Assembly: GCA_005116775.1 (NCBI GenBank)
Contig: SWDN01000005.1
Coordinates: forward strand, 16,349-53,364
Reading direction: 5' to 3'
DNA from: Nitrospira sp.
GTDB lineage: Bacteria > Nitrospirota > Nitrospiria > Nitrospirales > Nitrospiraceae
Length of the DNA: 37,016 nucleotides
The notes under the pieces are model-generated. The model was not told the DNA's origin, did not search any database, and saw only the letters and a program-made list of their open reading frames with translations. Positions 7,319 through 32,730 of this stretch are shown piece after piece. Within the stretch, counting starts at the first letter, position 1. Each line of letters opens with the position of its first letter. The position numbers and the translations under genes are program-made.

Positions 7319-7980
7319 CGGTGATGAAGCAGTTGATCGTGTCGGCTGGATTTGCGCTCATCGGCCTTTGGCCGGTCGTATCGCCGGCAGAGTGGGGCAA
7401 GCCTCTGGGCGGGACATACGACGGTCCTGAAGGGAAGTCGCGCGTCGTGACGCCGGCGGCTGCCGAATTGGGCGCGGATGAGCGGGCCACGATGGCCGTG
7501 TTCGAACGGGCGACGAAATCCGTTGTCTTTATCGCGAATACGGCGATTCAACGAGATCCCTGGTCGCTGAATCTCTTTGAGGCTCCGCAAGGGTCGGGAT
7601 CGGGATTCGTGTGGAATAAGCAGGGGCACATCGTCACCAATTTTCATGTCATCTACGGGGCGAATTCGGTCACAGTCACGCTGGCCGATCGGACGGAGCA
7701 CAAGGCCACGCTCATCGGCGCTGACCCTGATCATGATGTGGCGGTGCTGCAGATTCGCGCGCCCGAAGAGGCGCTTTCACCCATCGTCATCGGGGCATCG
7801 CAGGATTTGCGCGTCGGGCAGAAAGTCTTGGCGATCGGGAATCCGTTCGGCCTCGACCATACGCTGACGACCGGTCATGCCACCAGCGAACTTCTTGTTC
7901 TCCGAGCTTCCAACATAGATAGACCACTCGACCATCATGAAGATGAGGAAAGTCACAGAGACCGAGATCCAGATCCTTGA
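7315..7980 (+). pseudogene. Truncated trypsin-like (S1C, HtrA/DegP-type) serine protease
   Basis: The reading frame begins with a signal peptide (VMKQLIVSAGFALIG). It continues through the first half of an HtrA-type protease: GSGSGFVWN, TNFHVI with the catalytic His, DPDHDVAVLQI with the catalytic Asp, and AIGNPFGLDHTLTTG. In the family this last motif is followed by V-I/V-S and then by the GNSGGP segment carrying the catalytic Ser, and usually a PDZ domain. Here the homology ends at about 7878, and the remaining 33 codons read the wrong strand of a DUF2203 gene. The catalytic Ser is absent, so the product cannot be an active protease. The start overlaps the yjbQ stop as ATGA. Confidence 0.82.
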
Positions 7981-8239
7981 CCAGGATACCGAGTTCCTGA
8001 ATCGCCTGAAGGCTCGCGCTGATTTGTTGCAGACCCAGTATGTAGAGGTGTCCAACGGTGCTGCCTCCTCCATATTCAGCCTGAGCGCTGGCTTTTTTAA
8101 TGTCCTCCTTCGTACGAGATAAGACGGCTTTGGCCTGTTGGATCGACGTCAGCTTAGAGTTAAGCTGAGGAATGAGGCGATTGGCCTCTGATAACGTGAA
8201 TGTTCGCTCGTGTTGTCCCTGTTCGTCGTCGTGCGACAT
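7878..8239 (-). pseudogene. DUF2203-family protein, 3' end missing
   Basis: The product starts MSHDDEQGQHERTFTLSEAN at 8239, preceded by GAGGAGAC. It matches the DUF2203 pattern: a TFTLSEANRLIPQL opening, a long helical stretch, then VKDLDLGLCDFPHL, VVYLCWKLGE and EVRWWHD. Family members continue with about ten residues ending in a GFAGRQP-like tail. Here the match stops right after WWHD, at about 7880, and the frame runs on to 7787 through the antisense of the protease. Its function is unknown in the family. The break coincides with the break in the convergent protease, so both genes lost their 3' ends at one point. Confidence 0.75.
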
Positions 8240-8292
8240 CGTATGTCTCCTCGAAGCCCTCTCATTTAGCACACCACTCTTTTGTGCTGCAA

Positions 8293-8306
8293 CCGATAGC
8301 TATCGG
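8293..8306. repeat. Perfect 14-bp palindrome CCGATAGCTATCGG
   Basis: The sequence is its own reverse complement over 14 bases. It lies about 55 bases upstream of the DUF2203 start and about 90 bases upstream of the rho promoter, where an operator for either could sit. There is no T tract next to it. Confidence 0.5.
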
Positions 8307-8394
8307 AACAGGTTGTTCTGCGGTTCATGAGGGGACTTCTTGGGCTGGACTGATTCGACGCGAAGGAGGCGCTGTGAAAAAAAAGATATCCCTG

Positions 8395-8423
8395 TTGACA
8401 CAGAAGAGTGCTCGCGTTATGAT
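8395..8423 (+). promoter_or_regulatory. Near-consensus sigma-70 promoter for rho
   Basis: A perfect -35 TTGACA (8395-8400) is followed after exactly 17 bases by TATGAT (8418-8423). Transcription would start near 8430, leaving a leader of roughly 340 nucleotides before the rho start codon. Confidence 0.75.
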
Positions 8424-8767
8424 TTGCGGGTTCATTCAGCTCGGTTCGCAATAATCCCCACACCTATAAGACTTCCGGGGCACATCTCGAAACAAGCCGC
8501 AATAGCTCAAGGGACAGAGGCGAGTCAGCGACGCATGAGTTCCGGCGCGCAACAATCATTCGCAACCATGAGACAGAGTCGTACACGAGTAGCGACGCGC
8601 AAAAATTGGCCAGTTCCTCACGGGTTATCCTCTTGTAGCCGATAGACACGATACAATCATCAACGCATTACCAATACGTTCCTATTCAGTTCGTGGACAA
8701 TTTCCCATGGTTCACCATGTGCGATCGCTGCCGGTAACGATGCAGCTAAGGGCTTGAGAGGATATTC

Positions 8768-10039
8768 ATGGCACAAACGAAGGGGGAGGTTATGCATCTG
8801 GCGGAGTTGAAGCAGAAGTCCATTGCTGATCTCAATGAGGTGGCACGGGATCTGAAGATCGATGGCGCACCCAATCTGCGGAAGCAGGAATTAATTTTTG
8901 CGATTCTGCAGGCGCAGACCGCAAATAATGGTGTGGTCTTCGGCGAAGGTGTGCTCGAAACGCTTCCTGATGGGTTTGGGTTTCTGCGCGCACCCGATTC
9001 GAACTATCTCCCCGGTCCCGACGACATCTATATCTCGCCCTCTCAAATCCGACGATTCAATTTGCGCACCGGCGACATTGTATCTGGGCAGATACGTCCG
9101 CCGAAGGAAAGTGAACGGTATTTTGCGTTGCTCAAGGTCGAAAAGGTCAATTACGAAGACCCCGAAGTCTCTCGCGACAAAATTCTCTTCGATAACCTGA
9201 CGCCGCTGTATCCTGAAGAACGTCTGGTTCTTGAGTTCGACCGTGAAGAATATTGTACCCGCGTGATGGATCTCACGACCCCGATCGGTAAAGGCCAGCG
9301 CGGATTGATCGTCGCGGCTCCTCGAACCGGAAAAACGATGTTGCTGCAGGCTATCGCCCGGGCTATTCTTAAAAATCACAAGGAAGTGACCTTAATTGTG
9401 CTGCTCATCGATGAGCGGCCGGAAGAAGTCACCGACTGGCAGCGGCAGGTAAAGGCCGAAGTCATCAGCTCCACCTTCGATGAGCCGGCCCAGCGCCATG
9501 CTCAAGTGGCTGAAATGGTGCTCGAAAAGGCCAAGCGGTTGGTTGAACATAAGAAAGATGTCGTGGTGCTGCTGGATAGCATTACTCGCTTGGCTCGCGC
9601 ATACAATACGATTGCGCCTCCAAGCGGTAAGGTATTGTCGGGAGGGTTGGATTCAAATGCCCTTCAACGGCCGAAACGGTTCTTTGGAGCGGCTCGTAAC
9701 ATTGAAAACGGCGGCAGTCTCACCATTATGGCGACCGCGCTTGTCGACACCGGCAGCCGGATGGACGATGTGATTTTTGAGGAGTTCAAAGGGACCGGCA
9801 ACATGGAAGTCCATCTTGATCGCCGTCTGGCCGACAAGCGGCTCTTCCCGGCCATTGATATTGCCCAATCCGGGACGAGAAAAGAAGAGTTGTTGGTAGA
9901 CAAGGATCGTCTCAATAAGATGTGGATTCTGCGCAAAGTACTCAGTCCGCTTGGCACGATGGAAGCCATGGAGTTTCTGATGGACAAGCTGCATGGCACC
10001 AAGACCAACCAGGAGTTTCTGCAGTCGATGAATCGATAG
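8768..10039 (+). CDS. rho: Transcription termination factor Rho
   Basis: Rho is the hexameric RNA-dependent ATPase that ends transcription. The 423-aa product is full length. It has the N-terminal helical domain (about 10-50), the cold-shock RNA-binding domain (about 55-125, [13 protein letters not shown]) and the RecA-like ATPase with Walker A AAPRTGKT (183-190), Walker [17 protein letters not shown], and the RNA-contacting region [11 protein letters not shown]. The start at 8768 has GAGAGG nearby. A second ATG at 8792 ([11 protein letters not shown]) matches the usual family start and follows an AGGGGGAGG, although that is only two bases away, so either could be used. A 340-base leader precedes it. 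Confidence 0.97.
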
Positions 10040-10100
10040 CATCCGGCTTGTATCTGGCCGCTGAGACAGGGTACAGTGGCGGGTCTTCGAATAGGCGAAG

Positions 10101-10111
10101 GCTGATATATT
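10101..10111 (+). promoter_or_regulatory. Candidate extended -10 promoter for rpmE
   Basis: TG (10103-10104), one base, then TATATT (10106-10111) forms an extended -10 box 24 bases upstream of rpmE. A small hairpin (CTTCG/CGAAG, 10085-10100) lies just before it. Confidence 0.35.
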
Positions 10112-10134
10112 GTGATGTCGGGGGAGTGTGAATT

Positions 10135-10341
10135 ATGAAGAAGGGTATCCATCCCGTGTATCGGGAAGTGGCCGTGCATTGTGCGTGCGGCAATAAATAT
10201 AAGACCAGATCGACGGGCGGAGATATCAATGTCGATATCTGTTCAAACTGCCATCCCTTTTTCACAGGGACTCAGAAGATCATCGATACCGAAGGTCGTG
10301 TCGAACGGTTCAAAAAGAAGTACGCGAAGAAAGACAAGTAG
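10135..10341 (+). CDS. rpmE: 50S ribosomal protein L31
   Basis: This 68-aa protein of the large ribosomal subunit starts [16 protein letters not shown]. It is the zinc-binding type, with Cys residues in VHCACGN and [11 protein letters not shown] supplying the ligands, so it is probably the form used when zinc is plentiful. A GGGGGAG stands at a good distance upstream of the ATG. It lies between rho and prfA, a common arrangement of translation genes. Confidence 0.97.
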
Positions 10342-10360
10342 ATCGAGAGAGTTCATACGA

Positions 10361-10400
10361 GGGACCCTGCTTCGCTGAGGGTCAGGGTCTCTTCGTTTTT
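10361..10400 (+). terminator. Hairpin with short T tract between rpmE and prfA
   Basis: GACCCTG (10363-10369) can pair with CAGGGTC (10383-10389), extended at the base by one or two more pairs. CTTCG and five T residues (10396-10400) follow. The T tract is set back from the stem, so this may be a weak or partial terminator that lowers transcription into prfA. Confidence 0.45.
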
Positions 10401-10441
10401 GTGCGGCAGGGGCTGAGCGCGAATCAGAGGGAAGCGGGGCC

Positions 10442-11518
10442 ATGGAAGCAGTCTTGCTAAAAAAGTGGGAAGTGCTGGCCACTCGATACGATGAGTTGAC
10501 GAATCAGCTCATGGATCCATCCATGATGAGTCAACCTTCGCAGTTGCACAAGGTGAATAAAGAGCGAACGGATATCGAGCCGGCGGCCAAGCTTCTCGCC
10601 ACTTATCGAGACAACGCGCGGCAGCTAGAGGAAGCTGCTCAAATCCTTGCAGACCCCACGGCCGGAGTTGAATTACACAAGATGGCAATGGAGGAAAGCT
10701 CCACGCTCGAACAGCAGCAGCACGAGATCGAACAGCAGGCCCAAGAGCTGCTTATTCCCAAGGACCCGCGAGACGAGAAGAGTCTGCTCCTTGAAGTCCG
10801 TGCTGGGACAGGCGGAGACGAGGCGGCGCTCTTTGCCGGAGACTTGTTCCGCATGTACAGCAAATACGCAGAGATCAAAGGGTTCAAGGTGGATATGGTC
10901 GAAGCCACGGAAACCACAGGTGGAGGCTACAAGGGAGTCGTTGCACTGATCGAAGGCAAGGGCGCCTATAGCCATTTCAAATTCGAGGCTGGGGTTCACC
11001 GAGTTCAGCGTGTCCCCGTCACTGAGGCCAGTGGCCGGATTCACACGTCGACCGTTACAGTTGCCGTCATGCCTGAAGTGGACGAGGTGGACGTGCACAT
11101 CGATCCCATGGATCTCCGTATCGACACATTCTGTTCATCCGGCGCCGGAGGCCAGAGCGTCAATACGACAAAGTCGGCGGTGCGGATCACCCATATTCCG
11201 ACCGGTGTGGTGGTGAGCTGTCAGGACGAACGGTCGCAGCTGAAGAATCGCACCAAGGCGATGAGAACCCTGCGGGCCAGAATCGTCGAGGCGGAGCGGG
11301 AGAGGCAGGATGCGGAAATCGCGCAGAATCGTAAGGCTCAGGTGGGCACGGGCGAGCGAAGCGAAAAGATTCGCACCTACAATTTTCCCCAAAATCGTGT
11401 AACAGATCATCGCGTCGGCGTGACCTTGCATAAGTTGGAACAGGTGCTCGAGGGCGACCTCGGTGAATTTGTTCAGGCCTTGAAGGCACAACGTCAGCAA
11501 GAAGTGAGTGCAGCGTAA
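10442..11518 (+). CDS. prfA: Peptide chain release factor 1
   Basis: This class I release factor reads UAA and UAG stop codons. The 358-aa product is full length. The GGQ motif that triggers peptide release is at 236-238 (SGAGGQSVNTTKSAVR). The anticodon-like tripeptide is PVT at 192-194 (RVPVTEASGRIHTS), the RF1-type P-x-T rather than the SPF of RF2. The Gln of GGQ is the normal target of PrmC, whose gene follows directly and overlaps or abuts this one. That is the standard pairing. Confidence 0.97.
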   Translation: MEAVLLKKWEVLATRYDELTNQLMDPSMMSQPSQLHKVNKERTDIEPAAKLLATYRDNARQLEEAAQILADPTAGVELHKMAMEESSTLEQQQHEIEQQAQELLIPKDPRDEKSLLLEVRAGTGGDEAALFAGDLFRMYSKYAEIKGFKVDMVEATETTGGGYKGVVALIEGKGAYSHFKFEAGVHRVQRVPVTEASGRIHTSTVTVAVMPEVDEVDVHIDPMDLRIDTFCSSGAGGQSVNTTKSAVRITHIPTGVVVSCQDERSQLKNRTKAMRTLRARIVEAERERQDAEIAQNRKAQVGTGERSEKIRTYNFPQNRVTDHRVGVTLHKLEQVLEGDLGEFVQALKAQRQQEVSAA

Positions 11519-11519
11519 C

Positions 11520-12425
11520 ATGGATGCGGTTGCCCCCATTCCACAGTCAACAGGCCAGGCGACGCTCGGTGAGGTGATCACCGAGGCGCGACGGCTATTG
11601 GAACAGGCTGGTATCGAGAGCGCAGCGCAGGAAGCGTTGTGGATTGTGGAGCATGTGCTCCGGCTTCCTGTCCATCATGTGCTTACCAATCGAGACCGAG
11701 TACTGTCACGTACCGAACTCACAGCCACGCGAGGGCTGCTTGAGCGGCGAGTTGGTCGTGAGCCCTTACAATATATTCTGGGGACCCAGGAGTTTTGCGG
11801 GTTGGAGTTTCACGTCGATCCGGCGGTGCTTATCCCGAGGCCGGAAACAGAGTTGCTGGTGGAATATGTCGCACAACGGATTTCTGCCGAGCGAGAAGCC
11901 ACCATTGTCGATGTGTGCACGGGGTCTGGGTGTATTGCCGTGGCGCTTGCGCGCCTGAGACCTCGTGCGCACATGATCGCGACGGACCTATCGAACCTCT
12001 CGCTCAACGTCGCCAGGCAGAATGCCATTCGTCATGCGGTTGGTGAGCGGATCACATGGCTGGAAGGTAACTTGTTGGGAGCATTGGCGGGACAGGAGCT
12101 GGAAGGGCAGGTCGACGTCATTGTCTCAAATCCTCCCTATATTGCGCAGGCAGAGTGGGCGACGCTCCAGCCGGAGGTCCGGCTGTTTGAGCCGCGCGGC
12201 GCGCTGGTGGCAGGGCCTCAGGGGACGGAGTTGCACGAGCGGTTGCTGCAAGAGGCTGGTCGATACCTCTCTCCCGCCGGCGTAGTGATTATGGAAATCG
12301 GCGCCGGTCAGGCTCCGGCAATGCGCCAGATTATCGAGCGGATGGCAAAGTATCGACTCCACCGGCTGATCTACGACGAAGCGGGGCTTGAGCGTGTGGT
12401 GATTATCGAGCGAGCAGGCAGGTAG
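11520..12425 (+). CDS. prmC: Release-factor glutamine N5-methyltransferase
   Basis: PrmC methylates the Gln of the GGQ motif in release factors using S-adenosylmethionine. The 301-aa product has the N-terminal helical domain (about 1-95), then AVLIPRPETE (102-111), the SAM-binding VDVCTGSGCIAVAL (about 130-143) and the catalytic NPPY (204-207). The ATG at 11520 lies two bases after the prfA stop. A GTG at 11508 is possible but lies inside prfA. The arrangement prfA-prmC fits substrate and enzyme. Confidence 0.95.
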   Translation: MDAVAPIPQSTGQATLGEVITEARRLLEQAGIESAAQEALWIVEHVLRLPVHHVLTNRDRVLSRTELTATRGLLERRVGREPLQYILGTQEFCGLEFHVDPAVLIPRPETELLVEYVAQRISAEREATIVDVCTGSGCIAVALARLRPRAHMIATDLSNLSLNVARQNAIRHAVGERITWLEGNLLGALAGQELEGQVDVIVSNPPYIAQAEWATLQPEVRLFEPRGALVAGPQGTELHERLLQEAGRYLSPAGVVIMEIGAGQAPAMRQIIERMAKYRLHRLIYDEAGLERVVIIERAGR

Positions 12426-12434
12426 GGGTAGACG

Positions 12435-12995
12435 ATGGATCGCACAGTCATCACAGGCGGGACGCCGCTTCGAGGAGAAGTCCAGATCAGTGGGGCCAAG
12501 AATGCCGCGTTGCCGATCTTAGCCTCCACGATTCTTGGCGGCGGCGAATGCGTCATTACCAATGTGCCTCGCGTGGTGGACGTCGTCACCATGGGAAAGT
12601 TGTTAGGCATTTTGGGCGCGAAGGTTCAATTCGAGGAAAATCGCGCAGTCATCAACGCCGCGGTGATCACGTCAACCCAGGCTCCGTACGATCTCGTGAA
12701 GACCATGAGAGCCTCCGTTCTGGTGCTAGGGCCTCTATTGGCGCGATGGGGAGAAGCGACGGTGTCGATGCCCGGCGGTTGCGCAATCGGGTCTCGGCCC
12801 GTCAATCTCCATCTTGCCGGGTTGGCGAAAATGGGTGCAGACGTGTCGATGGAACATGGGTATATTCGTGCCAAAGCGAAGCGACTAAGAGGCGCGCAGA
12901 TCTATTGCGATACGCCGACAGTCACGGGAACAGAAAATTTAATGATGGCTGCAGTACTTGCAGATGGCACAACAATCTTAGAAGACCTATGTTGA
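12435..12995 (+). pseudogene. murA: UDP-GlcNAc 1-carboxyvinyltransferase MurA, truncated
   Basis: MurA performs the first committed step of peptidoglycan synthesis. The frame matches the family from residue 1 to about 183: K22 and N23 in SGAKNAALP, the fosfomycin-target Cys at 116 in SMPGGCAIGSRP, and GTENLMMAAVLADGTTILE. Family members then continue with N-A-A-x-E-P-E and more than 200 further residues. Here the homology stops at about 12983, and the frame reads D-L-C and a stop. The following bases encode the interior of HisG in another frame. MurA is normally essential, so this break is hard to accept as biological unless another copy exists. Confidence 0.9.
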
Positions 12996-13521
12996 ATATG
13001 GCGCAGCGGATGTCGGGATTGTCGGGAAAGACGTCTTGATGGAGCAGGACAGCGACGTCTACGAGCCATTGGATTTAGGGATTGGAGCGTGTAGAATCGC
13101 CGTCGCTGCGCTCAAGGGACAAGCCTCACGCGACCGGCTGTCCTCGAAAATTCGGGTGGCCACCAAGTATCCGAAGATCACCGAGCGGTATTTCAATCAG
13201 CGCGGCGTGTCGGTCGAAATTGTCAAGTTGTACGGCTCGATCGAATTGGCGCCGTTGGTTGGTCTGGCTGATCGGATCGTGGATCTAGTCGAGACAGGCA
13301 ATACCCTCAAGGCACATGATCTTGTCGAGGTGGAGTGCATCGCACAATCCACGGCTAGGTTGATCGTCAATCGGGCGAGTTTGAAGCTGAAGCATACAGT
13401 GGTTACGGAATTGATCAAAAAGCTCCGAGTCGTCACGAACACATCAACGGGGCCTCGGACCGTTGCTTCGCGCAAGTCTTTGCAAGGGGTACGTCGAACC
13501 GCCAAACGGACGCGCACATGA
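12985..13521 (+). pseudogene. hisG: ATP phosphoribosyltransferase HisG (short form), 5' end missing
   Basis: HisG begins histidine synthesis by joining ATP and PRPP. The sequence from 12985 reads TYVEYGAADVGIVGKDVL and continues to the normal end with DLGIGACRIAVA, KIRVATKYPKIT, VKLYGSIELAPLVGLAD and VECIAQSTARLIVNRAS. These are hallmarks of the short HisG form, which needs HisZ. Roughly the first 50-60 residues are missing. An ATG at 13036 lies in frame but falls in mid-domain and is not a genuine start. The frame upstream belongs to murA. The stop overlaps the hisD start as ATGA. Confidence 0.9.
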
Positions 13522-14624
13522 AGATTGTCGCCTCCACCGAGCGAGCCTTCCTCTCCGCCCTCAAGAGAGTCACGTCGCGTGGTCGCGTCCAAGGGGCTGC
13601 CGTCGAAAAGACAGTCAAGTCGATTCTGCAAGCCGTGGAACGGGGCGGCGATAAAGCCGTCCTCCGCTATACGAAACAATTCGACCGTGTTTCCATGAAG
13701 GATACAGGGTTGCGGGTGACCTCCGAGGAGATTAAACAAGCCTATTTCCACATCCGGAAAGACGAGGGCGATGCGCTCCGATTTGCAGCCCAGCGGATCA
13801 CGTCGTTTCACGAACGCCAACGCATCAAGACCTGGATGTATCAGGATAACCAGGCGACGCTGGGTCAGGTGGTGACACCGGTCGATGCCGTGGGAGTGTA
13901 TGTGCCGGGAGGAAAAGCCGTATACCCCTCATCGGTCTTAATGTGCGCGATTCCGGCCAAAGTTGCAGGCGTGTCCCGTGTGGTGATGTGCACACCGCCG
14001 CAAAAAGGTCCGATCAATCCGTATTTACTGGTTGCAGCCGACATTGCCGGCGTGACGGAGATCTATCGAGTCGGAGGCGTGCAAGCGATCGGAGCGATGG
14101 CCTATGGAACCAAGACCATCCAGCGCGTCGATAAAATCGTGGGCCCCGGCAATATTTATGTCGCGACGGCGAAGCGGCTTCTCTATGGCACAGTCGGGAT
14201 CGACATGGTGGCAGGCCCCAGCGAACTGCTTGTTGTCGCGGACGGCGATGCCAAGCCGGCGCATGTTGCAGCTGATCTGCTCTGCGAGGCGGAGCATGAC
14301 GAGGATGCGCAGGTCTATCTCGTGACCACATCGGCCCAGTTGGCAAAGGATGTGGTGCGCCTCATCGACAGCCAGTTGAAAGGGTTGCAACGGGAAAAGA
14401 TCGCGGCGAAGTCCATCGCGCGCCATTCAGTGGCCTTCGTGGTCGCCACGATGGACGAAGCCATCAATGTGGCCAACCAGATTGCCCCAGAGCACTTGAC
14501 CCTCTCAGTCGATGAGCCGTTCGACTATCTGGAGAAAGTCCGTCACGCGGGAGCGCTCTTTTTAGGCCGATACACTCCCCCATCGGTTGCGGATTATGTT
14601 GCCGGCCCCGGCCGCAGCGAGTGA
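13518..14624 (+). pseudogene. hisD: Histidinol dehydrogenase HisD, 3' end missing
   Basis: HisD oxidises histidinol to histidine in two steps using NAD and zinc. Residues 1 to about 363 match the family: VYVPGGKAVYPSSVLM, VGPGNIYVATAKR, IDMVAGPSELLV, DLLCEAEHD and the catalytic pair in APEHL (E325, H326). The match ends in SVADYVAGPG, which should continue with N-H-V-L-P-T-G-G and about 65 more residues including a zinc-binding His. Instead it reads R-S-E and stops. The residue before A-E-H, usually the zinc ligand Gln, is Glu here (CEAEHD), a possible second oddity. HisB, expected next, is absent. Confidence 0.9.
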
Positions 14625-14707
14625 AGGCCCGAGGCGTACCCTCTGGGGTACGTTGAGGGTCTGAACGATGCGAGAACGCGGCTGGCGGGCTTTTTCAGCA
14701 TCCTGCC
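14613..14707. repeat. Structured intergenic element, possible dispersed repeat
   Basis: This stretch lies between the hisD break and hisH. It contains GTACCC-TCTG-GGGTAC (14638-14653), a six-base-pair stem, followed by a segment ending GGCTTTTTCAGCATCCTGC. The texture is that of an intergenic repeat. From memory, very similar sequence recurs in Nitrospira genomes, but I cannot verify that here and found no second copy in this window. Confidence 0.4.
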
Positions 14708-16897: not shown

Positions 16898-17659
16898 ATG
16901 TTGACCAAACGCATTATTCCCTGCCTCGATGTGAAAGACGGTCGCGTCGTCAAAGGCGTGAGCTTTGTGAATTTGCGCGATGCGGGAGATCCAGTCGAAG
17001 TAGCCACGGTCTACGACCGGGAAGGAGCCGATGAACTCTGCTTCCTGGACATCACCGCGTCTCATGAAAATCGAAAAACCATCATCGGCGTGGTCGAGCA
17101 GACGGCGGCGCGGGTGTTCATGCCGCTGACTGTCGGCGGGGGAGTGAGAACGATTGAGGATATTCGGGCATTGTTGAATGCGGGTGCGGACAAGGTCAGT
17201 ATCAATACGGCGGCGGTCCAACGGCCTGAGTTTGTGAAAGAAGCAGCGGAGCGATTCGGGACGCAATGTATCGTCGTGGCCATAGACGCCAAGCATCGTA
17301 TCGCGCCGGCAACCGGATGGGAAGTGTTCACCCATGGGGGCCGCAAGCCGACTGGGCTCGACGTCGTCGAATGGGCAAAGATGATGGCGCAATATGGAGC
17401 AGGTGAGATTTTGCTCACGAGCATGGATCAGGATGGGCAGCAACGAGGATACGATCTCGCGTTGACGGCTGCTGTGTCGGAGGCTGTGTCGATTCCCGTG
17501 ATTGCGTCAGGGGGAGTAGGAAGCTTGGATCATCTCTACGATGGATTCGTTAGGGGCAAGGCCGATGCGGTCCTGGCCGCGTCCATTTTCCATTTCCGGA
17601 CTCACACGATTCAAGAGGCGAAAGCCTATCTTCGGCAGAAGGGAGTGGCGGTTCGATAA
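16898..17659 (+). CDS. hisF: Imidazole glycerol phosphate synthase, cyclase subunit HisF
   Basis: HisF closes the imidazole ring using ammonia from HisH. The 253-aa product is a complete barrel with D11 (IPCLDVKDG) and D130 (VVAIDAKH), and phosphate-binding GGGVRT and IASGGVG. The ATG at 16898 ([11 protein letters not shown]) matches the family start exactly, although no ribosome-binding site is visible. A GTG at 16850 would add 16 residues that overlap hisA and are not family-like. Its stop overlaps the hisI start as TAATG. Confidence 0.95.
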
Positions 17660-17799
17660 TGGATGTCGCGCGATTGAAATTCGATGCGCAGGGGATCTTC
17701 ATCTTCATGTGTTGGGCGGGCGCCACCTCGCTTGGCCCCCAGGCTAGGGGCTTGTTATCACACCACGTTGACAGATTTCTTTCCCGTCTGTTACCCTGA
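17659..17799 (+). pseudogene. hisI: Phosphoribosyl-AMP cyclohydrolase HisI, only the first 12 codons remain
   Basis: The frame opens [12 protein letters not shown], which is the normal beginning of HisI in this position after hisF. The rest of the enzyme (the QDWxDGTVLM region and the zinc-binding Cys residues) is missing. From about 17694 the sequence changes to IFIFMCWAGATSLG and ends after 46 codons, in what looks like the upstream region of dnaG. The assignment rests on 12 residues plus position, so it is less certain than the other truncations. Confidence 0.6.
17768..17797 (+). promoter_or_regulatory. Promoter of the dnaG-rpoD operon
   Basis: A perfect TTGACA (17768-17773) is followed after 18 bases by TACCCT (17792-17797). 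It lies about 80 bases upstream of the chosen dnaG start and downstream of the hisI break, so it belongs to the dnaG side. Confidence 0.5.
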
Positions 17800-21637: not shown

Positions 21638-21714
21638 GGGCCCATAGCTCAGGTGGTTAGAGCGGCTGACTCATAATCAGCTGGTCCTAGGTTCAAGTCC
21701 TAGTGGGCCCACCA
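21638..21714 (+). tRNA. tRNA with CAU anticodon (Ile2 or elongator Met)
   Basis: A 77-base cloverleaf is complete: acceptor GGGCCCA/TGGGCCC, D arm GCTC/GAGC, anticodon stem GCTGA/TCAGC with loop CTCATAA (anticodon CAT at 21672-21674), T arm CTAGG-TTCAAGT-CCTAG and an encoded CCA. The G1-C72 pair excludes initiator tRNA. The GGGCCC acceptor and overall form resemble tRNA-Ile2, whose C34 is changed to lysidine by TilS, more than elongator Met. That choice is tentative. Confidence 0.95.
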
Positions 21715-24249: not shown

Positions 24250-24687
24250 GCGCGAGGGAGAAGACTGGGTGATCGCTCGGGGCGGCAACGCTCTGAGAGG
24301 AAAGTCCGGACTTCATGGGCAGGGCGCTGGGTAACTCCCAGGCGGAGCGATCCGACACCAGCACCACAGAGAATAAACCGCCGATGGCCAGGGCGATGGG
24401 ATTTCGATCTAATTGTCCTGGCTCAGGTAAGGGTGAAACGGTGGGGTAAGAGCCCACCGCGGTGGTGGCGACATCACTGGCAGGGTAAGCGTCGCCCGAT
24501 GCAAGGCCAAATAGGAAGACATCTGTCGGCTTTTTTCGAAAAGTCGGCGACCGGCTGGCCCGGCCGAGGTCTTCGGGTAGGTCGCTTGAGGTTCGAGGTA
24601 ACTCGAATCCCAGAGAAATGATCATCTCTGCTTGGGAGCATATCCCAGGCAGGACAGAATCCGGCTTATCGGTCTTCTCCACCGCGC
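24250..24687 (+). ncRNA. rnpB: RNase P RNA, bacterial type A
   Basis: This is the catalytic RNA that trims tRNA 5' leaders. The universally conserved blocks are present: GAGGAAAGTCCGG (24297-24309) near the 5' end and ACAGAATCCGGCTTAT (24654-24669) near the 3' end. The closing helix P1 pairs GGAGAAGACTG (24257-24267) with CGGTCTTCTCC (24670-24680), and it can extend with GCGCG/CGCGC. Seven T residues (24688-24694) follow. The length of about 430 nucleotides fits type A. The last 60 or so bases are also the antisense of the 3' end of the glutaredoxin-like gene. Confidence 0.96.
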
Positions 24688-25056: not shown

Positions 25057-25203
25057 CACACATCTTTATCCCTGATTTTTCAGAATGTTCTGAACAGTCG
25101 TAGCTTCCTGTCCGGTGCTAGCTGGACGAGCTACGGCGAACCCCAATGTTGTGCTGACTCCACAGCGTCGCTCTTATCTAGCTGTATGGAGGGAGGGTCT
25201 GTC

Positions 25204-26556
25204 ATGAAGCTCACAGGCGCTGAAATCCTCATTGAATGTCTCAAACGAGAAGGCGTGAAGACAATTTTTGCGCTTCCCGGTGGTGTCGTTCTGAAGATTT
25301 TCGACATGCTTCATCAGCAGAAAGACATTGATGTGGTCCTGACTCGTCATGAGCAGGGTGCCGGCCATATGGCAGAAGGTTATGCCAAGGCGACCGGAAA
25401 AGCCGGGGTCTGCCTTGTGACATCCGGACCAGGTATGACGAACGTGATCACGGCATTGGCGGATGCCTACATGGACTCCGTTCCGTTGGTCTGTTTCAGC
25501 GGACAAGTTCCCACCAGCCTGATCGGAAACGATGCATTCCAGGAAGCAGATAATGTGGGATTGAGCCGTCCCTGTACCAAATACAATTTTCTGGTGAAAG
25601 ACGTAAAAGATTTGGCGATGACGATCAAAGAGGCGTTCTACATTGCGACGACGGGGCGTCCAGGTCCTGTGTTGGTGGATATTCCGAAAGACGTTTCCAT
25701 GGATAAGGCGGAATTTGTGTATCCGAGTTCCATCTCTATCCGCAGCTACAATCCAGTGTATGAAGGGAATAAATGGCAAATTAAGCAGGCCGCTGAGGCC
25801 ATGTCGAAAGCGAAGAAGCCGATACTGTATGTCGGTGGCGGCGTTATCTTCTCTGGCGCATCGCAAGAATTACTGGAGTTAGCTGAGCTGACCCATATGC
25901 CGGTCGACATGACATTGATGGGGCTCGGGGCGTTCCCTGGCGAACATCCTCAGTCCTTGGGTATGTTGGGGATGCACGGTACTTATTGGGCGAATATGGC
26001 CATGCACTACTCCGATCTTGTCGTGGCTATTGGGGCACGGTTTGACGATCGTGTGACCGGAAAGGTCTCCGAGTTTTGCCCTCACGCCAAGGTCATTCAC
26101 ATCGATATCGATCCGACCTCGATTCGGAAAAATGTCAATGTCGACATTCCGATCGTCGGGGACTGCAAGGCGGTGCTGCGTGAGTTGATTCAGATTCTTC
26201 GCGCCACGGTAAATGGCGATCAACGGGAGCTACGTAAGCCGTGGTGGAGTCAGATTCATGAATGGCAACAGGCGAACCCTCTTGCCTATCGGCAAGAAGC
26301 GGATGGCCCGATCAAGCCGCAACATGTCATTAGCCGACTCTACGACCTCACGAAAGATCGAGACCCGATTGTGTCGACCGACGTCGGACAGCACCAGATG
26401 TGGGCTGCCCAATACTTTAAGCTGGCAAAGCCGAATCGCTGGCTGACCTCAGGAGGGCTTGGAACCATGGGGTTCGGTTTCCCTGCTGCGATGGGGGCAC
26501 AGGCGGCGTTCCCGGGCCGGCTGGTTCTCTGCATTGCCGGAGACGGCAGTATCCAA
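25204..26556 (+). pseudogene. ilvB: Acetolactate synthase large subunit, truncated and fused in frame to leuA
   Basis: This enzyme makes acetolactate for valine, leucine and isoleucine. The start at 25204 (MKLTGAEILIECLKREGVKT) follows GGAGGGAGG. The thiamine-diphosphate-activating Glu is E50 in TRHEQGAGH, and the family is matched through VSTDVGQHQMWAAQY and LGTMGFGFPAAMGA up to GDGSIQ (446-451). The cofactor-binding motif should continue as M-N-x-x-E-L and reach an N-N about 28 residues later, with about 120 residues to the end. Instead, at about 26556, the frame passes without a stop into LeuA. The thiamine-diphosphate site is therefore incomplete and no activity is expected. The ilvN and ilvC genes expected next are absent. 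Confidence 0.92.
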
Positions 26557-27240
26557 GGGGCGAATGCCTTTGCCCATACGTCCGGCATTCATCAAGATGG
26601 TCTGCTGAAAGACAAGACAACCTATGAAATTATGCGGCCAGAGACGGTTGGTCTGGTCGAGAGCAAAATGGTCATGGGAAAGCTCTCAGGCCGGCATGCA
26701 TTTCGGCAGAGGCTGGTGGAGTTGGGCTATACGCTTTCTGACGAAGAGGTCAATCACGCATTTGAACGGTTTAAGAAGTTGGCCGATCAGAAGAGGGAAA
26801 TCTACGAAGAGGACCTTGAGGTCATCGTTTCAGAGGAGTTGGTCAAAATGGCCGATCGGATCACTTTAAAGTCGTTCCATGTGGCCAGCGGGACGGATCA
26901 GGTGCCAACCGCCACAGTCGAGCTCGAAATCGACGGACGAACGATCTCGCAGACAGGGACAGGCGATGGGCCGGTTGATGCGGTCTATCGGATGATTGCT
27001 GCTATCACGCAGACAAGGAGTACGCTTCTCATGTATGTCGTCAAGGCGATTACCGGTGGCACTGACGCCCAGGGCGAAGTCTCGGTCCGGGTTCAAGAAG
27101 ATGGACGCACCGTCTCAGGCCATGGGGCGGATACAGATATTATCATGGCCTCGGCGCGGGCCTATCTCAATGCGCTGAATAAGCTGTCGTACTTGGCCGG
27201 CAAACAGGCGCAGGGCGAACAGAAGGTCAACTTGATTTAA
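26557..27240 (+). pseudogene. leuA: 2-isopropylmalate synthase LeuA, C-terminal part only
   Basis: From GANAFAHTSGIHQDG onward the sequence is LeuA: the subdomain after the catalytic barrel (KTTYEIMRPETVGL, KLSGRHAFRQRL) and the regulatory leucine-binding domain (FHVASGTDQVPTATVEL, GDGPVDAVYRMI, GRTVSGHGADTDIIMASA). About 227 residues remain, ending normally. The catalytic TIM barrel with its metal-binding His residues, more than half of the enzyme, is missing. It has no start of its own and is joined in frame to ilvB. Confidence 0.92.
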
Positions 27241-27290: not shown

Positions 27291-27312
27291 CTAGTTGGCT
27301 GTGAGGCACGCC

Positions 27313-27675
27313 GTGGTTCATGTTACCCTGGCAGGTCGGCCTGAGTTTCTGGCCGGAGATCATACGGTACTGCGAGAGCTCCTGCATCCGTCGAAGCAGC
27401 CGCTGGCACTTGGGTATAGTATGGCGCACGGAACCTTGGCTCCTGGCGCTCGGTCGAAATGGCACAGATTGGCCTCTTCAGAGGTCTACTATATTATCGC
27501 CGGCCATGGACGGTTGGCGGTAGACGATTCTGTCGTCGCAGTAGAACCAGGCTCTGTCGTCTATGTGCCGCCGGGAAGTAAGCAGTCTCTCGAAAATCCT
27601 GGCCCCACAGCTATCGAGTTTCTCTGTTTGGTCGACCCTGCTTGGCGAATAGAGGATGAGGAAGTGTTGGAATAG
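27313..27675 (+). CDS. Small cupin-domain protein
   Basis: The product is about 120 aa, a single conserved-barrel cupin. Metal-ligand motifs are seen in GARSKWHRLASSEVYYIIAGHG (His, then Glu) and in VEPGSVVYVPPGSKQSLEN. It ends LVDPAWRIEDEEVL, a tail common in a cupin subfamily of unknown substrate. A GTG at 27313 is preferred because TGAGG stands six bases upstream; TTG 27295 and GTG 27301 are in frame. It lies between leuA and leuB, in the same direction, and could be co-transcribed. No role in leucine synthesis can be claimed. Confidence 0.78.
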   Translation: MVHVTLAGRPEFLAGDHTVLRELLHPSKQPLALGYSMAHGTLAPGARSKWHRLASSEVYYIIAGHGRLAVDDSVVAVEPGSVVYVPPGSKQSLENPGPTAIEFLCLVDPAWRIEDEEVLE

Positions 27676-27716
27676 TCTCCTGTGCGGCCATCACCCATAA
27701 AGAGGGAGTGTGATCT

Positions 27717-28790
27717 GTGAAGGCGAAGATTGCCGTATTAGCTGGCGATGGAGTAGGTCGTGAGATTGTCCCTGAGGCGGTGAAGGTCCTGAAGGCTGTG
27801 GCGGAGAAGTTCCGCCACACGTTTGAGTTTGCCTCCGGTGACGTTGGAGGTCAGGCCATTGACAAAGTAGGGGTACCACTTCCTCAAGAGACCTTGACGC
27901 TGGCCAAGCAAAGCGATGCCGTCTTGCTCGGCGCGGTTGGCGGCCCCAAGTGGGAAGGGTTGGAGTATAGCCTGCGTCCGGAACGCGCCCTGTTGGGTTT
28001 GCGCGAGCATCTGGGCCTGTATGCGAATTTACGGCCTGCGAAGTTATACCCCATGTTGACCGATGCTTCCACGCTGAAGCGCGACGTGATTGAAGGGATC
28101 GACATCCTCGTCATCAGGGAGCTGACCGGCGGTATTTATTTTGGAAAGCCGAAGGGAATCGAGAGACTGCCGAACGGGAGCGAACGAGGGTTCAATACCG
28201 AGGTCTATACGACCGAAGAAATCCGTCGCATTGCGAAAGTGGCATTCGAGGCTGCGAGAAAACGCCGGAAGAAGGTGATGTCCGTCGATAAAGCGAATGT
28301 GCTGGAGTCATCCGAACTCTGGCGTCGCGTCGTCATTGAGACCCACAAGGGGTATCAGGACGTCGAGTTGAGCCATATTTACGTCGATAATGCGGCGATG
28401 CAACTGGTGCGCAACCCTCGGCAGTTCGATGTGATGCTCTGTAATAATATATTCGGTGATATTCTCAGCGACGAAGCGGCGATGTTGACAGGATCCATCG
28501 GCATGTTACCGTCGGCCAGTATCGGCGCACAGGTCGGGCTGTTCGAGCCGATTCACGGCAGCGCGCCAGACATTGCAGGGAAGAATGTGGCGAATCCCAT
28601 TGCGACGATTGCTTCAGCGGCAATGATGCTGTCCTATGGGTTCAAGTTGGATAAAGAAGCGGAATCCATCGAGCAGGCGATCGTGAAAACCCTCGATCTG
28701 GGTTACCGCACTAAAGACATTCACAGTCCTGGGACTCGCCTGGTCAGTACGACGGAAATGGGCGAGGCCATCCTGCAACATTTGAATTGA
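27717..28790 (+). CDS. leuB: 3-isopropylmalate dehydrogenase
   Basis: LeuB oxidises and decarboxylates 3-isopropylmalate in leucine synthesis. The 357-aa product is complete: [14 protein letters not shown] at the N-terminus, the substrate Arg residues in [22 protein letters not shown], the catalytic Tyr in [10 protein letters not shown], the Lys in [11 protein letters not shown], and the metal-binding Asp residues in [13 protein letters not shown]. The NAD-specific region [14 protein letters not shown] is present. A GTG start follows GAGGGAG. The next gene begins within 20 bases. Confidence 0.97.
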
Positions 28791-28799
28791 GGGAGGTTC

Positions 28800-30014
28800 T
28801 TGAGGCTGATGAGTGCAGATCTCAAAACCGGACTGATCCAGACCGTTGCCGGTACGGGAGATCCAGGCTGGTCTGGCGACGCGGCGATGGCCATCGCCGC
28901 TTGTCTGAATGAGCCGAAGGGACTGACCCTGGATGCCGAGGGAAACCTGTTCATCGCCGACTCAGAAAATCATCTTGTGCGAAAGATTGACAGACGGACA
29001 GGCCGTATCACGACCGTCGCGGGGTGTAGGCAGACGATCGGGCCTGAAGCAAAGCCTGTTTCACCGGCGCCAGTCGCACAGAGAGTGTACGATGACCCGT
29101 TTGCCGAAAGTGACGCGGTTAATTCGCACGCCTTTTCTCAGCAGACAGACTTGAGCGGAACGGTTCGTTATGTCGTGGCTGGCACAGCGCCGGCGAAACG
29201 TTTCAGCGGCGACGGTGGCCCAGCGGATCAAGCGCTGTTGAACTTCCCGACGGCCGTGGTGGTCGATCGGGCAGGGCATCTCTACATTGCGGACATGCTG
29301 AACCATCGGGTCCGGCGTGTGGATGCGATCACAAGAGTGATGACGACAGTTGCAGGCCTAGGCCAGCCTCGATATTCGGGAGACGGAGGATTGGCTGTGG
29401 AGGCGGGGCTGAATGAGCCGGCCGCTCTGGCATTGAGCGAAGAGGACATCCTCTATATCGCGGATCAAAGCAACAACCGTGTCAGGGCGGTGGATTTGGC
29501 CACTGGATTGATTCGTACGGTCGCAGGGACGGGAGCAGCAGCGTATAATGGGGATGGTATGGCCGCGATAGAAACAGGTCTGGCTGGCCCCAGCGGATTA
29601 GCGCTGGCGTCGGATGGCACGTTGTATATCGCCGATACGTTCAATGGCAGAATTCGCACCGTTGATCCGCTCACTGGTCTCATACGAACGGTGGCGGGGG
29701 ATGGCGGTGAATATCGGTATCAGGGGGTGAATGAACCGCCCAGTGCCAGTCTCTCTCGGCCATCGGGGATTACATTGGATGAAGAAGGGAATCTCTACAT
29801 GACCGATTCGGACAATCATCTGGTGCGACGGCGGGATCGAATCACTGGATGTCTTGAACGTATCGCTGGGGTGGGGGTGGCCGACTACGGGGGTGACGGG
29901 GGAGCAGCCCTTGAGGCCGGCTTGAGTTACCCCTTTGGAATTGTGGTGAGTCGTGCGGGACATGTGTTTGTGGCCGATACCTTCAATCATCGTATTCGAG
30001 AGATTTGGCAGTAG
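28800..30014 (+). CDS. NHL-repeat beta-propeller protein
   Basis: The product is about 404 aa, made of six NHL repeats of about 55 residues with the repeating pattern T-V-A-G-x-G, G-D-G, L-x-x-P-x-G/A-L/V, L-Y-I-A-D-x-x-N-x-R-V/I-R. This forms a six-bladed propeller, usually a binding platform. Blade 2 carries an insert of about 55 residues that breaks the pattern (GCRQTIGPEAKPV onward). No signal peptide is seen. The start is unclear: TTG 28800 with GGGAGG three bases upstream, or ATG 28809. The first residues (ADLKTGLIQTVAG) look like a joint between blades, so the N-terminus may be shortened. Confidence 0.75.
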   Translation: MRLMSADLKTGLIQTVAGTGDPGWSGDAAMAIAACLNEPKGLTLDAEGNLFIADSENHLVRKIDRRTGRITTVAGCRQTIGPEAKPVSPAPVAQRVYDDPFAESDAVNSHAFSQQTDLSGTVRYVVAGTAPAKRFSGDGGPADQALLNFPTAVVVDRAGHLYIADMLNHRVRRVDAITRVMTTVAGLGQPRYSGDGGLAVEAGLNEPAALALSEEDILYIADQSNNRVRAVDLATGLIRTVAGTGAAAYNGDGMAAIETGLAGPSGLALASDGTLYIADTFNGRIRTVDPLTGLIRTVAGDGGEYRYQGVNEPPSASLSRPSGITLDEEGNLYMTDSDNHLVRRRDRITGCLERIAGVGVADYGGDGGAALEAGLSYPFGIVVSRAGHVFVADTFNHRIREIWQ

Positions 30015-30028
30015 GCAGAATCGAGGTT

Positions 30029-31051
30029 ATGTTGAAAAAGAAGCCTGGGTATGTGATCGCCATCCTCGGTGCAACGGGGGCGGTGGGGAAAGAAACTCTT
30101 GAGATTTTAGAGGAGCGAAAGTTTCCGTTGGCCTCGCTCCGCCTGTTTGCTTCGAAGCGTTCGGCTGGCGAGGTGATGTCGTGTCAGGGCAAAGACTGGA
30201 CGGTTGAGGAGTTGACGCCGGAGTCGTCGTTTGCCGGTGTCGATTTCGCATTTATTTCAGCGACCGATGCGATCAGTCGCGAGTACGGTCAACGGCTCGG
30301 AGCAGCCGGGGTTGTGGTCATCGACGACAGCGGTGTCTTTCGGATGGAGGTCGGCGTTCCGTTGGTGGTGCCGGAAGTGAACGCTCATGCGCTGTTGACG
30401 ATGCCTCGGGGCATTGTGTCGATTCCCAATTGCACGACGACACCACTCGTCATGGCGCTCAAGCCGCTGCAGGATGCCGTGGGGGTGAAGCGCGTCGTCG
30501 TTACGACGTTTCAATCGGTCTCCGGGACTGGCGCTGCGGCCATGGATGAGCTGATGACGCAGACGAAGGATCTGATGTCCTTTCGCGATACGAAGGCTGA
30601 AGTGTATCCGTATCAGATCGCATTCAATCTGCTGCCGCATATCGGATCATTCAACGACGGCGGGGACTGCTCCGAAGAAGTGAAAATCGCCCGCGAGACG
30701 AGAAAAATTCTCGACGCTCCGAGGCTTCGCGTGACAGCGACGACCGTGCGTGTTCCAGTGATGCGCTGCCATTCCGAAGCCATCAACGTCGAGTTGGAAA
30801 AACCGCTCAAGCCGAATGACGCTCGTGCGCTGTTGGCGGCTATGCCGGGTGTCATTGTGTACGATGATCCAGGCAAGAAGCTCTACCCCATGCCTTTGGA
30901 TGCGACCGGCAAAGATGAGGTCTACATCGGCCGCGTCAGGGAGGACGAATCGATCACGAACGGTCTGAATCTCTGGGTGGTTTCCGATAATCTCCGCAAA
31001 GGGGCCGCGCTCAATGCGGTGCAAATCGCAGAACATTTAGCGCAAGGCTGA
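30029..31051 (+). CDS. asd: Aspartate-semialdehyde dehydrogenase
   Basis: Asd reduces aspartyl phosphate to the semialdehyde that feeds lysine, diaminopimelate, threonine and methionine synthesis. The 340-aa product is complete. It has the NADP-binding GATGAVG (14-20), the catalytic Cys at 135 in SIPNCTTTPLVM, the substrate-binding QSVSGTGAAAMDEL, and the His in RCHSEAINVE. The ATG at 30029 follows GAGG; an upstream TTG at 30005 lies inside the NHL gene. Its stop overlaps the next start as TGATG. Confidence 0.96.
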   Translation: MLKKKPGYVIAILGATGAVGKETLEILEERKFPLASLRLFASKRSAGEVMSCQGKDWTVEELTPESSFAGVDFAFISATDAISREYGQRLGAAGVVVIDDSGVFRMEVGVPLVVPEVNAHALLTMPRGIVSIPNCTTTPLVMALKPLQDAVGVKRVVVTTFQSVSGTGAAAMDELMTQTKDLMSFRDTKAEVYPYQIAFNLLPHIGSFNDGGDCSEEVKIARETRKILDAPRLRVTATTVRVPVMRCHSEAINVELEKPLKPNDARALLAAMPGVIVYDDPGKKLYPMPLDATGKDEVYIGRVREDESITNGLNLWVVSDNLRKGAALNAVQIAEHLAQG

Positions 31052-31305
31052 TGGCTGAATGGGGAAATCTTGGCAAGGTCTTTATCGGAGTCGGGCTCTG
31101 TGTGGTTGTGGTCGGCCTGCTGTTGCTGATCGCAGACCGCGTTCCAGGACTTGGGAATTTCTTGGGATGGTTCGGCAAGCTTCCCGGCGACATCTCTATC
31201 CGACGAGATAACTTCAGCTTCTTCTTTCCCATCGTCACGAGTCTGCTCCTCAGCGTGATTCTGAGTCTGGTATTCTATTTCATATCATGGATCATTCGCC
31301 GATGA
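31051..31305 (+). CDS. DUF2905-family small membrane protein
   Basis: The product is 84 aa with two membrane segments (about 8-27 and 57-80) joined by a short loop, FGKLPGDISIRRDNFSFFFP. This is the hallmark of the DUF2905 family, whose function is unknown. The ATG overlaps the asd stop (TGATG), and its own stop overlaps the spoIID start (ATGA), so three genes are translated in series. Confidence 0.85.
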   Translation: MAEWGNLGKVFIGVGLCVVVVGLLLLIADRVPGLGNFLGWFGKLPGDISIRRDNFSFFFPIVTSLLLSVILSLVFYFISWIIRR

Positions 31306-32297
31306 AGAAGCTGAGAAGTGGCGTGTGTCTTACCCTCGTGATGGGAGCATGGCTTCTCGGTCTGTCTTCTGGAGTCGAGGCGGCCGAGTCGATCCGCGTC
31401 CTGCTGGCGGCTGAGGTGTTGCGACTCGATATCCGTTCAGATGGTCCGTTGTGGGCGACAGATGTAAATGGTCGTGGTCAGACTCTGCGCGCCTCGGTCC
31501 AGGTCTTAGCCGCTGACAAGGGGTTTTTCGTGAACAGTGTCCGGATGCAGACGGACCAGTTGACGATCCATGGCGGAGAGCAAGGTCTCACCGTGACCTT
31601 TCCTCGGCCCTCTCGGAAGCCGAATGGGGCGGCGGTGTCATCGGGCGACTCCGGCACAGAGTTTTCCGTAAGCGGCCTTATCCATCTTGTGAGAAGAGGT
31701 AAGGGAATTCTGGTCATCAATCGGGTGGACGTCGAAGAATATGTCAAAGGGGTGGTGCCCGCCGAGGTCAGCTCAACCTGGCATCCGGAGATGTTGAAGG
31801 CGCAGGCAGTCGCGGCCAGGACCTATGTCCTCTATCAGCAGATGTTGAGTGCGACGCGAGACTACGATGTAGCGTCTACAGTGCAAGATCAGGTCTACCG
31901 TGGGAAGCAGGGAATTGATGCCGGGATTCTGCGCGCGGTTGAAGATACGCGCGGACTGGTCGTGACCTATGATGGCGCACCGATTTATGCTGCATTCTCA
32001 TCGACGGCCGCAGGGTTGACGGAAGATGCCATGAATGTGTGGTCGAAAGACTATCCCTATCTCAAGGGTGTGGAGTGCCCCTTCGACTTGATGTCGCCGT
32101 TCTATCAATGGAAATCTTCCTTTACTGTCGATACGCTCGAGCAAAACTTACGGCAACAGGGATTTTCCGTGGGTACAATTGCGACGATGACGCCCCTGTC
32201 GTTCAGCCGTGGAGGGCGCATTGCGAAGTTGCGTGTCCTCCACTCTGGTGGAGAATTGGTGCTTCGCGGAGAAGAGTTGCGGAAAGCAGTCGGGTAG
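31302..32297 (+). pseudogene. SpoIID/LytB-domain protein, 3' end missing
   Basis: SpoIID-type proteins are peptidoglycan lytic transglycosylases or amidase enhancers in the envelope. The product has a signal peptide (MKKLRSGVCLTLVMGAWLLG) and the SpoIID core: INRVDVEEYVKGVVPAEVSSTWHPEMLKAQAVAARTY (the Glu of PAEV is catalytic in SpoIID), then YDVASTVQDQVYRG and STAAGLTEDA. It ends RGEELRKAVG then a stop. The family continues past this point with a short final strand, so the last residues are missing. The change comes at about 32298, where antisense ppiD begins. Most of the domain is intact, so activity might remain. The ATG at 31302 overlaps the DUF2905 stop. Confidence 0.78.
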
Positions 32298-32730
32298 CGG
32301 GGGTCAGATGGTTCGCTGCCAGGAGTCGTTGATAGATCTCCGGATCGAAGGCGCCGTTCTTTTGAAAGTCGGGGATTTGCATGATGACTTCACGCAGGTC
32401 AGCGTCAGCGACAGTGAGACCCATGTTCTTTGCCGCGATGAGCCAGGTCCGATTGTCGACGAGTTGATCGATCACCATTTGCTTGATCGTTTCGTCTTTG
32501 AATTCTCCGGGGACTTTGTCTTTATAGAAGCGGTAGGTGTTCTCGTAGGCGCGCCGAAACTCATCACGGGATATGGTGAGATCTCCGACTGAGGCAACCG
32601 CGGCGCCGGTTTGCTGCTCGCCGAACCCCCACCAACCCATCGTGATGACGAAGGTGAGGGCGATGACTCCCATGATGGACTTGAGGAGCCAGGGGTAGCT
32701 ATGTGACGATTCGCGCATCAATTTGAGCAT
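32298..32730 (-). pseudogene. PpiD/SurA-type periplasmic folding factor, N-terminal part only
   Basis: The product begins MLKLMRESSHSYPWLLKSIM and has one membrane anchor (about 14-36). It continues with the SurA-like chaperone domain: VASVGDLTISRDEFRRAYEN, KQMVIDQLVDNRTWLIAAKN, DADLREVIMQIPDFQKNGAF and YQRLLAANHLTPAT. PpiD proteins run to 600 aa or more, with a parvulin prolyl-isomerase domain. Here the match ends at about residue 144 (32298), and the frame continues into antisense spoIID to 32203. GAGAGG lies upstream of the ATG. It is a membrane-anchored chaperone fragment without its catalytic domain. Confidence 0.82.

What the first reader, a model, noticed from the sequence alone, without database searches (positions are those of the whole stretch)
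7870..32305. Six gene-breaking junctions in a row, all preserving ancestral gene order
At about 7880, 12985, 14611, 17694, 26556 and 32298 a conserved gene stops in mid-domain and the sequence resumes inside a gene (or intergenic stretch) that would normally follow a little further on. Between the breaks, genes are intact with no scattered stops or frameshifts, which is unlike ordinary decay. Losses include murA, parts of hisG/hisD/hisI, hisB, ilvN, ilvC and the leuA barrel, a combination that would make a free-living cell inviable or auxotrophic. The best explanation is an assembly with gaps closed without Ns, or reference-guided joining. Real serial deletions, perhaps in a mixed population, are the alternative.
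Basis: partly seen in the sequence, partly recalled or inferred. Interest (0 to 1): 0.75.

Follow-up and report, generated by a model that had tools for sequence, protein, structure and literature searches.

The report
Assembly joins that skip missing DNA
Six broken genes in this stretch of a draft Nitrospira genome from an environmental sample are almost certainly places where separate assembly pieces were glued together without marking the missing DNA between them, not real gene losses.

Summary
The six junctions are really in the sequence: 7874|7875, 12952..12984, 14608..14610, 17694|17695, 26555..26557 and 32296|32297. Against up to six same-genus genomes the window skips about 13.8-15.7, 0.9, 1.06, 0.9, 4.8 and 1.6 kb and stays colinear. 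Lost are hisB, ilvN, ilvC, psd, pssA, queA, most of hisIE, parts of murA, hisG, hisD, ilvB, leuA and others. Searches of the assembly with the missing stretches found no other copy.

Best explanation: contigs butted end to end without N. The genome is a 70%-complete draft, and the window is exactly the piece between two 100-N placeholders. Similar unmarked steps recur elsewhere in this contig and in 2 of 3 other comparable stretches. In the homologous region five near-complete relatives show one such step between them; a 71%-complete one shows two. At murA the break carries 31 bases of a different murA, continuing in frame, as a chimeric contig tip would. Eleven of 12 edges cut genes.

No reads were available and the software step responsible is unknown.

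The parts
7315..7874 (+). HtrA/DegP-type protease gene, cut in the trypsin domain (left edge of join 1)
   Evidence: Pfam Trypsin_2; relative ORF L034:15316-16449 matches TIGR02037, below its cut-off; junction alignment
7874..7875 (.). Join 1: 13.8-15.7 kb missing relative to G001, G018, G010 (Pup-proteasome-like and 2-oxoacid:ferredoxin oxidoreductase genes)
   Evidence: search of G000 gave one 971-base 75% match
7875..8272 (-). DUF2203 gene, last codons missing (right edge of join 1, opposite strand)
   Evidence: Pfam DUF2203 in window ORF 7787-8272 and in relative ORF L034:1587-2135
12435..12952 (+). murA 5' part (about 173 codons of about 420)
   Evidence: TIGR01072 positions 1-185 of 416, tip included
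12953..12983 (+). Join 2: 31-base divergent murA continuation, read as a chimeric tip; 931 bases missing in relatives
12984..13521 (+). hisG 3' part
   Evidence: alignment from 12984; ORF 13036-13521 matches TIGR00070 positions 72-183 of 183
13518..14608 (+). hisD, C-terminus missing
   Evidence: TIGR00069 positions 1-332 of 393
14608..14610 (.). Join 3: about 1.06 kb missing against G001 (hisD end and hisB); the right side begins in a dispersed repeat
14610..14706 (.). Copy of a dispersed repeat at the right edge of join 3
   Evidence: 40 further repeat-sized matches in G000 (in which 40 of 115 first-look candidates were scored); 30 hits in 676,384 sampled bases
17656..17694 (+). First codons of hisIE (left edge of join 4)
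   Evidence: relative ORF L033:9753-10409 is HisIE; alignment
17694..17695 (.). Join 4: 906 bases missing (rest of hisIE, start of hinT)
17695..17747 (+). HinT (HIT family) C-terminal fragment
   Evidence: frame read; relative ORF L033:9412-9756 is HIT family
25186..26555 (+). ilvB 5' part
   Evidence: TIGR00118 positions 1-441 of 557
26555..26557 (.). Join 5: about 4.79 kb missing (ilvB end, ilvN, ilvC, psd, pssA, leuA start); the only in-frame join of the six
26557..27240 (+). leuA 3' part, in frame with ilvB
   Evidence: NF002087 positions 288-510 of 516
31287..32296 (+). SpoIID/LytB-domain gene, C-terminus missing
   Evidence: TIGR02669 positions 2-190 of 270, 2-269 in the relative
32296..32297 (.). 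Join 6: about 1.6 kb missing (spoIID end, queA, end of a surA-like gene)
32297..32730 (-). SurA-like N-terminal gene fragment on the opposite strand
   Evidence: Pfam SurA_N_3

Best explanation
The window is one piece of a scaffold of a roughly 70%-complete Nitrospira MAG. Assembly of this organism broke into shorter contigs, for example at sequences shared with co-occurring organisms and at dispersed repeats. A later scaffolding or gap-handling step placed the contigs in genomic order and, at these six places, butted the ends together with no Ns, while at other places it left fixed 100-N placeholders. Each junction is an unmarked gap and the missing gene parts were simply not assembled. Shown: exact colinear jumps, no other copy of the missing DNA found in the assembly, similar steps in other contigs, a divergent tip at one break, and only one such step in five near-complete relatives. 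Inferred: that the DNA exists in the organism, why the contigs ended where they did, and the software step responsible.
For: (1) G000 is 2,670,838 bases in 53 contigs, 70.19% complete. The window is exactly bounded by 100-N runs; its 276,384-base scaffold has 17 runs, all of exactly 100. (2) Six clean colinear jumps. (3) Searches of G000 with the missing segments found the flanks, repeats and one partial 75% match only. MurA is over the cut-off in 17 of 19 genomes; G000 holds only positions 1-185, plus a distant hit of the kind all 19 have. (4) 16 N-less jumps in 222,287 aligned bases of four sampled stretches: 8 in C45 including these 6, 4 in C9, 4 in C3, 0 in C23; 4 clean steps of the opposite sense (bases extra in G000) by the mirrored rule. 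(5) In the homologous region five near-complete relatives show one such step in all; the 71%-complete MAG G010 shows two, one placing a copy of the repeat against the inside of leuA. (6) At murA 31 bases continue the frame but match 4 of 4 relatives at 52-58%, lower than each of 488 31-base windows of the retained murA against the same relative; G+C is 39% against 48% or more at the same place in 50 loci. (7) Four of 76 N-run edges lie at the dispersed repeat against 0.5% expected, and so do 2 of 16 N-less joins, one of them join 3 itself. (8) 11 of 12 edges lie inside genes; one of six joins is in frame.
Against: No reads or assembly graph were available, so spanning reads cannot be excluded. 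N-less and 100-N joins coexist, so one simple rule (all Ns stripped) does not explain both. Only one of six joins has a clear divergent tip. The tip's best match among 50 Nitrospira loci is 77%, while some true loci have a best match as low as 68% there, and 4 of 487 31-base windows of the retained murA have as low a G+C, so neither measure alone proves foreign origin; its source was not found. Edge conservation is only modestly raised: p about 0.0003-0.01 against G001 and G018, 0.05-0.21 against G008. The repeat in (7) was defined from join 3, so that join counts circularly; without it 1 of 15 joins remains. The ten N-less steps outside the window were compared with G001 only, and the four opposite steps show that natural indels occur, so some of the ten may be natural.
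Confidence: 0.95

Rival explanations
1. Real serial deletions in a degenerating, host- or community-dependent Nitrospira, each fixed by illegitimate recombination.
For: Junctions are sharp, genes between them are open and near full length, and no other copy of the missing segments was found in the assembly.
Against: murA, needed for the cell wall (established knowledge), is cut with no other copy over the cut-off; a 31-base divergent murA tip does not come from a simple deletion; similar steps are rare in near-complete relatives but present in another incomplete MAG. Genome size over completeness gives about 3.8 Mb, in the range of relatives, but this argument is circular, because real losses would also lower the completeness figure.
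Confidence: 0.02
2. Real deletions present only in part of a mixed population, captured by the consensus.
For: MAGs are population consensus sequences (established knowledge); order is preserved.
Against: Six large deletions cutting unrelated essential and biosynthetic genes within about 24 kb would all have to be the assembled form; none of 80 named Nitrospira loci has an alignment across any of the five junctions tested, though many of them cover only some.
Confidence: 0.02
3. A sub-case of the best explanation: mis-joins made specifically by reference-guided ordering on another Nitrospira genome.
For: All six joins keep the order of relatives; fixed 100-N gaps are what several scaffolders write (recalled, from no call).
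Against: Paired-end, long-read or Hi-C scaffolding would also keep order; the C9 sample holds an N-run interval that is not colinear with G001, though another reference could have been used.
Confidence: 0.25

Closest known systems
Local assembly errors and scaffolding gaps in MAGs (Chen et al. 2020, PMC7111523; search listing and passages seen)
   Same: Incomplete or incorrect genes at scaffold joins; unsupported consensus, which the authors open up and replace by Ns.
   Different: Here the gaps are about 0.9 to 15 kb, unmarked, in series, and mixed with fixed 100-N gaps. I did not meet this exact case in the passages shown; the whole paper was not read. The authors' names are recalled.
Fragmentation of metagenomic assemblies by strain variation and multi-copy contigs (Dehalobacter gap closure, PMC3528712; search listing and passages seen)
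   Same: Breaks even in non-repetitive genes caused by coexisting similar genomes, and multi-copy contigs with chimeric edges.
   Different: There gaps were resolved; here the ends were joined with the intervening DNA left out.

Membership tests
Unmarked assembly gap (contigs butted without N) | Colinear jump with nearly constant missing length against several relatives | tested here: met
Unmarked assembly gap (contigs butted without N) | Recurs in the genome and goes with incompleteness | tested here: met
   16 places in four sampled stretches, with 4 opposite steps as background; five near-complete relatives 1, 71%-complete G010 2
Unmarked assembly gap (contigs butted without N) | Edges show contig-end traits (chimeric tips, repeats, conserved sequence) | tested here: met
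   murA tip; repeat at join 3; conservation raised clearly in two of three relatives. Met for some edges, not for each
Unmarked assembly gap (contigs butted without N) | No reads span the joins | not testable with these tools
   no reads available
Genome reduction by real deletion | Essential genes kept | tested here: not met
   murA truncated at 185 of 416 with no other copy over the cut-off
Genome reduction by real deletion | Smaller genome than relatives | tested here: inconclusive
   2.67 Mb at 70.19% against 2.6-4.4 Mb for the six same-genus genomes listed at 99% or more; correcting for completeness is circular for this question

The most novel reading that the evidence does not exclude
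A Nitrospira lineage with real serial deletions through murA and the histidine and branched-chain pathways, living as an auxotroph without its own MurA.
Probability: 0.02. Interest if true: 0.8.

Novelty: not a real feature. Interest (0 to 1): 0.12.

Why it matters
A species-level genome in a collection carries unmarked gaps that look like gene losses and gene fusions (for instance an open 684-residue IlvB-LeuA protein). Anyone using it for metabolism, auxotrophy, gene-fusion or pan-genome work would be misled. A relative (G010) shows similar breaks, so the check used here (clean colinear jumps against near-complete relatives) may be worth running on other MAGs of low completeness and few contigs.

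Tried and rejected
A search of plasmids with 6.5 kb of the window gave one 66-base hisD match and nothing useful. The scan of named genomes did not list the window's own record among its 80 best, so the assembly could not be named and its method is unknown. The C34 sample was left out of the count of junctions because its synteny with G001 is broken (aligned 4,223 and 11,613 bases). Aligned pieces were dropped under 250 bases, under 300, of 200 or below, of 80 or below and of 150 or below. The rule finds only colinear joins, so non-colinear N-less joins would be missed. Searches of G000 with missing DNA scored 40 of 80, 110 and 115 first-look candidates and all candidates; limits were E 1e-30, 1e-10 and 1e-5. 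Two literature searches found nothing; two others gave the papers cited. I did not search for the organism from which the murA tip came.

Considered and rejected, by eye on the edges printed only: excision of a mobile element (no element or target duplication seen) and microhomology deletion (no shared stretch beyond a base or two seen).

Full report
What was checked. The window lies at G000:C45:16349-53364 of a 2,670,838-base, 53-contig draft genome, 70.19% complete and 1.7% contaminated. Same-genus genomes with a full-length match encode LeuB at 92-96% identity, and the best HisA relatives in named genomes are Nitrospira and Nitrospirota MAGs, so I take the window to be Nitrospira. I fetched the homologous region from six same-genus genomes and aligned it.

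The six breaks are real in the sequence. Against G001 the window runs colinearly and jumps at 7874|7875 (13,791 bases missing), 12952..12984 (931), 14608..14610 (1,062), 17694|17695 (906), 26555..26557 (4,792) and 32296|32297 (1,604). Other relatives give the same places and similar lengths; not every fetched stretch covers every junction, and at the third the repeat on the right side is absent from G008, G010 and G018. None of 80 named Nitrospira loci has an alignment crossing any of the five junctions tested; several are short or diverged and bear on only some junctions.

What is missing. In relatives the gaps hold: the end of an HtrA-type protease gene, Pup-proteasome-like genes (ATPase, Dop, beta subunit, PafA; all four under the NCBIfam cut-offs), 2-oxoacid:ferredoxin oxidoreductase genes and the end of a DUF2203 gene; the murA end and hisG start; the hisD end and hisB; most of hisIE and the start of hinT; the ilvB end, ilvN, ilvC, psd, pssA and leuA start; the spoIID end, queA and the end of a surA-like gene. 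Eleven of twelve edges lie inside genes; the twelfth starts in a dispersed repeat. Only the ilvB-leuA join is in frame.

No other copy was found in the assembly. Searches of G000 with the missing stretches return the flanks, copies of dispersed repeats, and one 971-base 75% match within the first missing stretch (in only 40 of the first-look candidates were scored). In a search for murA, 17 of 19 genomes hold a match over the cut-off; the two without are G000 (positions 1-185) and G025, which has a fragment of positions 324-416. All 19, G000 included, also have one distant match, which I take to be aroA (inference).

Why an artefact. First, the window is exactly the piece between two runs of 100 N, and the scaffold carries 17 such runs, all exactly 100. 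In G001 the seven tightest N-run joins (100-119 unaligned bases, runs included) span from about nothing to 1.65 kb, so the run length is a placeholder. Second, N-less steps are not confined to the window: by one rule 16 occur in four sampled stretches, eight in C45 (two outside the window), four in C9, four in C3 and none in C23; a fifth sample, C34, could not be compared. The mirrored rule found four steps of the opposite sense (425 to 1,271 bases extra in G000), a rough measure of natural indels, so some of the ten outside the window, which were compared with G001 alone, may be natural. Third, in the homologous region the near-complete relatives G001, G005, G008, G012 and G018 show a single comparable step (about 680 bases, in G001), while G010, 71% complete, shows two, one of which sets a copy of the dispersed repeat directly against the inside of leuA.

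Fourth, the murA break. After base 12952 the murA frame continues for 31 bases as a recognisable but different murA, then jumps into hisG. Those 31 bases match 4 of 4 relatives at 52-58%, whereas the retained murA matches at 82-84% and none of its 488 31-base windows is as low against any of the four. Their G+C is 39%, below all 50 Nitrospira loci compared at that place, though 4 of 487 windows of the retained murA are as low, and some true loci are at least as isolated in identity. A deletion would join native murA to hisG; a contig end that strayed into another organism's murA through shared bases gives what is seen. This origin is inferred; the source was not found.

Fifth, weaker support. 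N-run edges fall at the dispersed repeat in 4 of 76 cases against 0.5% expected, and so do 2 of 16 N-less joins; one of those two is join 3, from which the repeat was defined, so only the other counts freely. Edges are somewhat more conserved than background against G001 and G018 (p about 0.0003-0.01), weakly against G008 (p 0.05-0.21).

Against this: no reads were at hand; only one join has a clear divergent tip; and the coexistence of marked and unmarked joins means the software step is unknown. Genome size over completeness is about 3.8 Mb, within the range of same-genus genomes, but that test is circular here and I count it as inconclusive.

Compared with what is known, this is a severe form of the gaps and local assembly errors described for MAGs (PMC7111523, passages seen) and of fragmentation by coexisting similar genomes (PMC3528712, passages seen). 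It is not a biological feature. The practical value is a warning about this genome, and perhaps others made the same way.

Noticed in passing
window 14610-14706: A dispersed repeat of roughly 100-130 bases, present at dozens of places in G000; similar short repeats are dispersed in G001 and G018. Nature not determined (no Rfam match at gathering score there).
   Followed up: partly
G010:C25, reversed 60-kb stretch (L045-L047) near 39992 and 45289: A second incomplete Nitrospira MAG has two similar N-less breaks: one at the RNase P RNA region and one setting the dispersed repeat against the inside of leuA.
   Followed up: partly
G001:C7 (L034:8396-15242): G001 carries a Pup-proteasome-like cluster (ATPase, Dop, proteasome beta, PafA; all under the NCBIfam cut-offs) between the HtrA-type gene and rho, in the stretch missing from the window.
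   Followed up: no
window 5199-5893: About 695 bases with only 20 at the same place in G001, the one clean extra stretch of the window by the rule used.
   Followed up: no
G000:C45:60590-73707: About 13 kb with only 724 bases at the syntenic place of G001; content not examined.
   Followed up: no
window 24257-24684 and 21638-21711: RNase P RNA (class A, full model length) and a tRNA gene between the joins.
   Followed up: no
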